20,448 bases of DNA from a virus, in IMG/VR virus record IMGVR_UViG_3300031669_000299, positions 1 through 20,448 of that record. One strand, given 5' to 3'. Both the position numbers and the translations under genes were made by a program. The notes under the pieces were generated by a model that worked only from the letters and a program-made list of their open reading frames with translations, searched no databases and was not told the origin of the DNA. Of the stretch, positions 10,916 through 11,822 are shown piece after piece. Position 1 is the first letter of the stretch. Every line of letters starts with the position of its first letter.

Positions 10916-10984
10916 CAGGGAAGGCAGAAATCGAATCCACCTTGGAGGTTTTGGAGACCTCTCGTTCACCTTGAACACTTCCCT
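10916..10984 (-). tRNA. tRNA-Trp(CCA)
   Basis: Perfect acceptor AGGGAAG/CTTCCCT, anticodon stem GAGGT/ACCTC with loop CTCCAAA, T-stem GTGGA/TCTGC, discriminator G as expected for Trp. D-arm is a small GTTC-AAGGT-GAAC. 69 nt. Leader CAT. Confidence 0.9.
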
Positions 10985-10996
10985 ATGCTTACTACT

Positions 10997-11577: not shown

Positions 11578-11580
11578 ATG

Positions 11581-11670
11581 ACGGATGCTCTACCCGCTGA
11601 GCTACCGACCCCTCCGCCCTTAATAGGGGCTATGGAACCGAGGCGGACTCGAACCACCGACCTTCCGAAC
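11581..11670 (-). pseudogene. permuted tRNA unit X: 3' half (11634-11670) precedes 5' half (11581-11611)
   Basis: On the minus strand a T-arm half comes first: TCGGA (39-43), AGGTC, GGTGG-TTCGAGT-CCGCC, acceptor TCGGTTC and C73. A 22-nt linker follows, then a 5' half: GGGTCGG, TA, D-arm GCTC-AGCGGGTA-GAGC, A, TCCGT. The two halves fit each other: GGGTCGG pairs with TCGGTTC over 7 bp (four G-U), and TCCG pairs with CGGA. CAT stands at both unit borders. The anticodon loop cannot be rebuilt. It may be a permuted tRNA gene or recombination debris. Confidence 0.55.
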
Positions 11671-11745
11671 ATGACGGTGCTCTACCAATTGAGCTACACC
11701 GGGGATCTCTCCCCAGCGACAGGACTCGAACCTGCAACCTCCGTC
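11671..11745 (-). pseudogene. permuted tRNA unit Y: 3' half (11711-11745) precedes 5' half (11671-11703)
   Basis: After the CGA trailer of tRNA-Asp comes a 3' half: GACGG (39-43), AGGTT, GCAGG-TTCGAGT-CCTGT, acceptor CGCTGGG, G73. A 7-nt linker follows, then a 5' half: CCCGGTG, TA, GCTC-AATTGGTA-GAGC, A, CCGTC, AT. The acceptor halves pair 7 of 7 (two G-U), and CCGTC pairs perfectly with GACGG. Halves cover positions 1-33 and 39-73; nucleotides 34-38, the anticodon, are missing unless flanking bases are used. The 5' half joins directly to the 3' half of unit X. Confidence 0.6.
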
Positions 11746-11748
11746 TCG

Positions 11749-11822
11749 CGCCGTTGAAGGGGTACGATCCCTCTGTCTCTAGATTGACAATCTAGCGCCT
11801 TTACCACTTAGGCTACAACAGC
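11749..11822 (-). tRNA. tRNA-Asp(GTC)
   Basis: Acceptor GCTGTTG/CAACGGC, discriminator G (Asp identity), anticodon stem CTAGA/TCTAG with loop TTGTCAA, T-stem GAGGG/CCCTT with loop ATCGTAC. Leader CAT, trailer CGA. Confidence 0.92.

What the first reader, a model, noticed from the sequence alone, without database searches (positions are those of the whole stretch)
11581..11745. Two half-tRNA pairs arranged in permuted order inside the tRNA array
Between tRNA-Asp and tRNA-Pro the order on the coding strand is Y 3' half, Y 5' half, X 3' half, X 5' half. In Y the acceptor halves pair 7 of 7 and the anticodon-stem halves CCGTC/GACGG pair 5 of 5. In X the acceptor pairs 7 of 7 (four G-U) and the anticodon stem 4 of 5. 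D-arms and T-arms are complete. CAT stands at the unit borders, as at normal tRNA 5' ends. Permuted tRNA genes are known from some algae and archaea. Here the anticodon nucleotides are not recoverable, so either flanking bases are used in a processed RNA, or these are remnants of tandem duplication followed by loss of the outer halves.
Basis: partly seen in the sequence, partly recalled or inferred. Interest (0 to 1): 0.85.

Follow-up and report, generated by a model that had tools for sequence, protein, structure and literature searches.

The report
Phage tRNA mimics built inside out
Between two ordinary tRNA genes this phage carries two conserved RNAs that fold like tRNAs read from the middle outwards (amino-acid end sealed by a hairpin, anticodon end left open), so they look like decoys or adaptors resembling the tRNA-like part of bacterial Y RNAs, not broken tRNAs and probably not tRNAs that are later repaired.

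Summary
On the minus strand, between tRNA-Asp and tRNA-Pro, lie two circularly permuted cloverleaves: Y (11745-11673) and X (11668-11581).

They are not remnants. At the same Asp-Pro slot, six related phages (terminase about 52-81% identical) hold Y, and one of them also holds X. The two helices that define the permutation covary: 4 of 5 anticodon-stem pairs and 7 of 7 acceptor pairs have double changes. Overall 95.8% of cells are paired, against 40-51% in slid controls. The tertiary pair 15-48 switches between A-U (6 units) and G-C (3 units) with no exception.

They are probably not permuted tRNA genes. The acceptor stem is capped by GNRA, UUCG or CUUG loops or a hairpin. U33, a 7-nt anticodon loop and an encoded CCA are missing.

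The fold is that of the tRNA-like domain of bacterial Y RNA (YrlA). A model built only from these phages finds a Y RNA beside a Ro-like gene in a mycobacteriophage. The basal Ro60-binding stem is absent, and no Ro60-like gene was found in the contigs.

Best reading: a stand-alone phage tRNA mimic released by tRNA processing. Fold and conservation are shown; the decoy role is inferred.

The parts
11673..11745 (-). Unit Y: circularly permuted tRNA-like RNA. AC3' 11745-11741, variable 11740-11736, T-arm 11735-11719, acceptor 3' strand 11718-11712, cap 11711-11704 (GAGAGATC, i.e. an A-T pair closing a GAGA tetraloop), acceptor 5' strand 11703-11697, D-arm 11694-11679, AC5' 11677-11673
   Evidence: Minimum free energy fold is exactly this cloverleaf, -32.9 kcal/mol, z -3.2; covariation; conserved in seven phages
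11581..11668 (-). Unit X: second permuted tRNA-like RNA. AC3' 11668-11664, T-arm 11658-11642, acceptor 3' strand 11641-11635, 23-nt cap holding a GCCC/GGGC hairpin 11634-11612, acceptor 5' strand 11611-11605, D-arm 11602-11587, AC5' 11585-11581
   Evidence: Present also in L009 (989-1075) with compensatory changes; cap hairpin predicted in both; its cloverleaf lies 2.4 kcal/mol above its own minimum, within the range of the array's ordinary tRNAs
11669..11672 (-). 4-nt spacer ATGT between Y and X
   Evidence: Spacer is also 4 nt (AAAT) in L009
11746..11748 (-). CGA between the tRNA-Asp discriminator base and Y: a typical 3' trailer of this array
   Evidence: GCGA kept in six of seven phages; other tRNAs of the window also end in CGA trailers
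11578..11580 (-). CAT between X and tRNA-Pro: the array's commonest 5' leader
   Evidence: 17 of 30 tRNAs of the window are preceded by CAT
11749..11822 (-). tRNA-Asp(GTC), upstream neighbour
   Evidence: ARAGORN and Rfam 58.8 bits
11500..11577 (-). tRNA-Pro(TGG), downstream neighbour, with encoded CCA
   Evidence: ARAGORN and Rfam 60.9 bits
7965..12906 (-). Phage tRNA array of 30 ordinary tRNAs that holds the slot

Best explanation
[quoted passage not shown] They are transcribed in the tRNA array (inferred). RNase P at the 5' end of tRNA-Pro and the 3'-end processing of tRNA-Asp would release them as a by-product, because nothing but a typical trailer (CGA) and a typical leader (CAT) flanks them (inferred from anatomy). 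Each folds into an L shape with an intact elbow, a sealed acceptor arm and an open anticodon end (shown by covariation). Such an RNA cannot be charged and cannot decode. [quoted passage not shown]
For: Same slot between Asp and Pro in seven phages. Covariation in nine units: 95.8% of cells paired, 14 pairs with double changes, 0 of 500 shuffles, slid controls 40-51%; manual alignment agrees. Pair 15-48 is A-U in 6 and G-C in 3 units; U8, A14, GG of the D-loop and TTCRA of the T-loop are invariant. The unit in L103 was not used to build the model and was found by it at 55.3 bits; its minimum-energy fold is the permuted cloverleaf capped by CUUG. Caps: GAGA (window), GAAA (L009, L010), UUCG (L019), CUUG (L103). 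YrlA is the only Rfam family besides tRNA with a good match (38.8 bits, E 1.9e-7, below its cut-off 69). The model built only from this family finds a unit with all pairs standard, E 1.3e-11, just downstream of the Ro-like gene of mycobacteriophage OhShagHennessy. RtcB lies next to the tRNA array in two relatives, and a PF09414 RNA ligase is in three.
Against: No expression data. The decoy role has no direct evidence and the target is unknown. Cloverleaf is the minimum-energy fold in only 4 of 9 units, and L046 is 8.9 kcal/mol off (ordinary tRNAs of the window: 11 of 30, up to 5.7 off). All contigs are fragments, so a Ro60-like gene elsewhere cannot be excluded. The Rfam YrlA cut-off is not reached.
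Confidence: 0.6

Rival explanations
1. They are true Y RNAs: a Ro60-like protein of the phage (outside the contig) or of the host binds them, and the tRNA-like domain tethers PNPase.
For: Same permuted fold; Y-RNA-like units lie beside Ro-like genes in mycobacteriophage OhShagHennessy and Enterococcus phages; Ro-like genes occur in 669 of 50,697 phage records.
Against: The basal stem that binds Ro60 is missing: only CGA and CAT flank the helices, and only 1 to 4 nt in L103, whereas the Enterococcus and mycobacterial units have 9-bp and 7-bp basal stems. No TROVE, DUF2828 or Ro-like profile match in contigs of up to 96 kb.
Confidence: 0.2
2. [quoted passage not shown]
For: Permuted order; split at the anticodon as in most algal cases (PMC3978253); relatives encode RtcB and a PF09414 RNA ligase.
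Against: Stable tetraloops or hairpins cap the acceptor stem in all nine units; position 33 is U in only one of nine; the joined anticodon loop would range from a few to about 65 nt; no CCA and no constant would-be anticodon. Bacteria lack the BHB splicing endonuclease (established knowledge).
Confidence: 0.06
3. Structured spacers: the fold only keeps the ends of tRNA-Asp and tRNA-Pro apart so that they are processed well, and has no function after release.
For: The units fill the space between a standard trailer and a standard leader exactly.
Against: A spacer needs no tRNA elbow, yet elbow bases are invariant and pair 15-48 covaries; other gaps of the arrays hold no such unit.
Confidence: 0.08
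4. Debris of tandem duplication and loss of outer halves.
For: tRNA arrays recombine easily; X may be a later addition, since it is seen only in the window and L009.
Against: Conserved slot and compensatory changes across seven phages; no relative with intact tRNAs at the slot.
Confidence: 0.02

Closest known systems
tRNA-like domain of YrlA, bacterial Y RNA (Rfam RF02553; structure 6CU1)
   Same: Circularly permuted tRNA order (T-arm, capped acceptor arm, D-arm, 5' and 3' ends at the anticodon stem), intact elbow sequences; 6CU1 superposes on tRNA by circular permutation (PMC11472068)
   Different: YrlA is defined by a long basal stem that binds Ro60 plus the tRNA-like domain (PMC8394870); here the basal stem is absent, two units can stand in tandem, and they sit inside a tRNA array. 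Score 24-39 bits, cut-off 69
Phage Y-RNA-like units beside Ro-like genes (mycobacteriophage OhShagHennessy, Enterococcus Schiekvirus)
   Same: Same permuted unit; found with the model of the window's family
   Different: They have basal stems (TGGACTC/GAGTCCA, AAGAATCTA/TAGATTCTT) and lie next to a Ro-like gene
Circularly permuted tRNA genes of algae and archaea
   Same: 3' half before 5' half, often split at the anticodon loop (PMC3978253)
   Different: Those mature to aminoacylated tRNAs with an anticodon; here there is no anticodon loop, and the acceptor cap is a conserved stable loop

Membership tests
YrlA-type Y RNA | Circularly permuted tRNA-like domain with D-, T- and acceptor arms | tested here: met
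   Covariation in nine units; match to RF02553
YrlA-type Y RNA | Basal stem of paired 5' and 3' ends that binds Ro60 | tested here: not met
   Only CGA and CAT flank the units; 1 to 4 nt in L103; known phage examples have 7 to 9 bp
YrlA-type Y RNA | Rfam gathering score (69 bits) | tested here: not met
   38.8 bits window, 34.6 L009, 33.3 L048, 24.4 L046; the Enterococcus unit beside a Ro-like gene also stays below, 45.2
YrlA-type Y RNA | Ro60/Rsr gene in the same genome | tested here: inconclusive
   None with PF05731, PF11443 or alignment A5, but all contigs are fragments
YrlA-type Y RNA | Binds Ro60 and PNPase; modified by DusA and TruB | not testable with these tools
   Needs biochemistry (properties as reviewed in PMC8394870)
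Circularly permuted tRNA gene | 3' half precedes 5' half, halves pair | tested here: met
Circularly permuted tRNA gene | Joined ends give a 7-nt anticodon loop with U33 and an anticodon | tested here: not met
   U33 in one of nine units; loop length varies
Circularly permuted tRNA gene | Removable intervening sequence between acceptor ends | tested here: inconclusive
   Length 6-23 nt would fit, but the content is stable tetraloops or hairpins
Circularly permuted tRNA gene | Circular intermediate and aminoacylated product | not testable with these tools
   Needs RNA from infected cells

The most novel reading that the evidence does not exclude
A class of Ro60-independent phage RNAs made of the tRNA-like domain alone, kept at a fixed slot of large tRNA arrays, released by tRNA processing and acting as decoys for tRNA-recognising host enzymes (anticodon nucleases, RNA repair or PNPase), possibly circularised by a phage RNA ligase.
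Probability: 0.4. Interest if true: 0.78.

Novelty: new variant of a known kind. Interest (0 to 1): 0.63.

Why it matters
Phages carry tRNAs partly to outlast host nucleases that cut tRNAs. An RNA that keeps the tRNA body but has neither an amino-acid end nor an anticodon would be a direct probe of what those enzymes read. For YrlA, the idea that its tRNA-like domain competitively inhibits an anticodon nuclease was proposed but not tested (PMC7790460); a natural form without the Ro60 module makes it testable. Standard tRNA finders do not report these RNAs (ARAGORN leaves the gap empty), so more may lie unnoticed in phage tRNA arrays.

Tried and rejected
1. Collinear tRNA from Y 5' half and X 3' half: Rfam tRNA matches it only without the acceptor (24.4 bits), and the acceptor pairs 1 of 7.
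2. Cross-pairing of Y GACGG with the CCGTC inside X: possible in the window, not kept in L009 (GTAGG against CCCGT, sequences).
3. Model score alone as proof: ordinary tandem tRNAs reach 41.5 bits in these phages, and a tRNA pair in Salmonella phage 19 reaches 50.8, so I relied on pairing, covariation and position.
4. Permuted units elsewhere in the arrays: none convincing; L009 3262-3336 spans two tRNA calls; L021 hit is spurious.
5. DNA patterns for more members in viral contigs gave only loci already known; one exact pattern gave none.
6. Host: the genome scan found distant terminases (30-42%) in a Streptosporangiaceae MAG, a Streptomyces and a Hyphomicrobiaceae MAG; host not settled.
7. 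T4-type RNA ligase PF09511: no match anywhere, including controls, so nothing can be concluded.
8. The main papers on YrlA (Chen 2014, Wang 2018, Sim and Wolin 2018) are not held; I used reviews that cite them.

Full report
Setting. The window is a 20,448-base virus contig of IMG/VR. Its minus strand holds 30 ordinary tRNA genes between 7965 and 12906. ARAGORN and Rfam at curated cut-offs leave the 170 bases between tRNA-Asp and tRNA-Pro empty.

Check of the observation. Y pairs 7 of 7 in the acceptor and 5 of 5 in the anticodon stem; X pairs 7 of 7 and 4 of 5. As a chance control I extracted the stems of 196 ordinary tRNAs of seven related arrays and scored each neighbouring pair in the same permuted register: mean 5.8, maximum 10 of 12 in 189 pairs, against 12 and 11 for Y and X. 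The Y fold of lowest energy is exactly the permuted cloverleaf.

Relatives. A terminase search gave L009/L015 (the same phage in two assemblies) and L010; a wider one gave L019, L046, L048 and L082. All with a long array keep the order Thr-Gly-(Glu)-Asp-gap-Pro. The gap holds a Y unit in each: L009 910-984, L010 2047-2118, L019 1371-1441, L046 5343-5429, L048 5672-5757, and L103 7750-7820, the last being the extended contig of L082. L009 also holds X (989-1075). L103 was found with covariance model R1, which had not seen it.

Covariation. On alignment A2 the permuted structure has 95.2% paired cells and 13 of 21 pairs with changes on both sides; sliding the partner by 1 to 3 bases drops this to 38-52%. 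With all nine units (A4, fitted to the model): 95.8%, 14 pairs, 0 of 500 shuffles. A hand-made structural alignment, checked letter for letter against the loci, gives the same: anticodon stem 43 of 45 cells paired and 4 of 5 pairs with double changes; acceptor stem 57 of 63 and 7 of 7; the seven Y units alone, 3 of 5 and 6 of 7. The tertiary (Levitt) pair 15-48 is A-U in six and G-C in three units without exception, and U8, A14, the D-loop GG and TTCRA are invariant. The RNA therefore keeps the L shape. This excludes debris for Y and makes it unlikely for X.

Tandem-duplication test.

Not a gene for a decoding tRNA. The acceptor stem ends in A-GAGA-T (window), T-GAAA-A with a bulged T (L009), G-GAAA-C (L010), C-UUCG-G (L019) or G-CUUG-C (L103), and in L046, L048 and both X units in a longer cap with a hairpin. 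Exchange of one stable loop for another is expected if the cap stays in the RNA, not if it is cut out. Position 33 is T in one of nine units. The bases that would form the anticodon loop number from a few (L103) to more than 60 (L010). No CCA is encoded at the acceptor 3' strand. Algal permuted tRNAs are processed through a circular intermediate at a BHB motif (PMC3978253); bacteria lack that endonuclease (established knowledge).

What it resembles. Among all Rfam families, only YrlA (RF02553) besides tRNA scores well: 37.3 bits and 38.8 bits in the window, 34.6 in L009, 33.3 in L048, all below the cut-off of 69. YrlA has a long basal stem that binds the Ro60 homologue Rsr and a tRNA-like domain that binds PNPase and is modified by DusA and TruB (review PMC8394870); its crystal structure matches tRNA by circular permutation (PMC11472068). 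Y RNAs have been reported in mycobacteriophages (cited in PMC12282133). As a control, model R1 found a unit with all pairs standard (46.6 bits, E 1.3e-11 in 36 kb) in the gap after the gene annotated 'Ro-like RNA binding protein' of mycobacteriophage OhShagHennessy, and units of 58-63 bits just upstream of a DUF2828/DUF7788 gene with a von Willebrand A match in Enterococcus phages, a protein alignable with the Ro-like one. These have basal stems TGGACTC/GAGTCCA and AAGAATCTA/TAGATTCTT (read). The window family has none: the array's common trailer (CGA) and leader (CAT) abut the helices. No TROVE, DUF2828 or Ro-like profile match appears in its contigs, the largest 96 and 89 kb, but all are fragments.

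Neighbourhood. In L046 and L048 an RtcB ligase gene lies about 2-3 kb from the array in the same direction (interrupted by an intein-like insert in L048), and a PF09414 RNA ligase is present in L019, L046 and L048. In Salmonella, Ro60, YrlA and RtcB share one operon (PMC7790460). The link to RNA repair is thus suggestive. RtcB was not found in the window's contig or its close relatives.

Mechanism. Shown: fold, conservation, slot, sealed acceptor, open anticodon end. Inferred: release by RNase P and tRNA 3' processing, stability, binding of proteins that read the tRNA body. Least certain: the target. Wolin and colleagues suggested that the YrlA tRNA-like domain could inhibit an anticodon nuclease (PMC7790460); a form without the Ro60 module fits a pure decoy, but competition for PNPase is equally possible.

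Limits. Seven phages, no RNA data, host unknown. The cloverleaf is the lowest-energy fold in 4 of 9 units; for ordinary tRNAs of the window it is 11 of 30, so this is not unusual, but L046 is 8.9 kcal/mol off. Model scores alone do not separate permuted units from tandem tRNAs.

Noticed in passing
L009 6264-6604 (+); contig range G001 36749-37089: A full class A RNase P RNA (203.9 bits, cut-off 100) lies inside the tRNA array of a related phage; the 12 other records searched have none.
   Followed up: partly
L111 2671-2734 and 3003-3073 (Enterococcus phage EfV12-phi1): Unannotated Y-RNA-like units upstream of a DUF2828/DUF7788 gene with a von Willebrand A match, alignable with Ro-like proteins; same in related Schiekvirus phages.
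   Followed up: partly
L134 4058-4123 (mycobacteriophage OhShagHennessy): Unannotated Y-RNA-like unit just downstream of the Ro-like gene 51, with a 7-bp basal stem.
   Followed up: partly
L010 8708-11416 and L012 2-2719: The terminase large subunit reading frame is 902-905 aa with an intein-like insert in two relatives; the RtcB gene of G014 (L131 2196-4379) also carries one.
   Followed up: no
L010 6217-6292 and L011 3823-3898: ARAGORN calls a tRNA with anticodon CTA (amber), overlapped by an Arg call on the other strand.
   Followed up: no
window 10916-10985 (-): Weak match to the selenocysteine tRNA family (27.8 bits, cut-off 47) in the gap after tRNA-His; possibly an undetected tRNA, for example Ser, which the array otherwise lacks.
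   Followed up: no
L115 400-560 (Salmonella phage 19, unverified record): An apparent tRNA whose 5' and 3' halves are separated by another 3' half; may be an assembly fault.
   Followed up: no
L009 3305-3381: tRNA with a two-base anticodon call (aa) next to tRNA-Arg.
   Followed up: no
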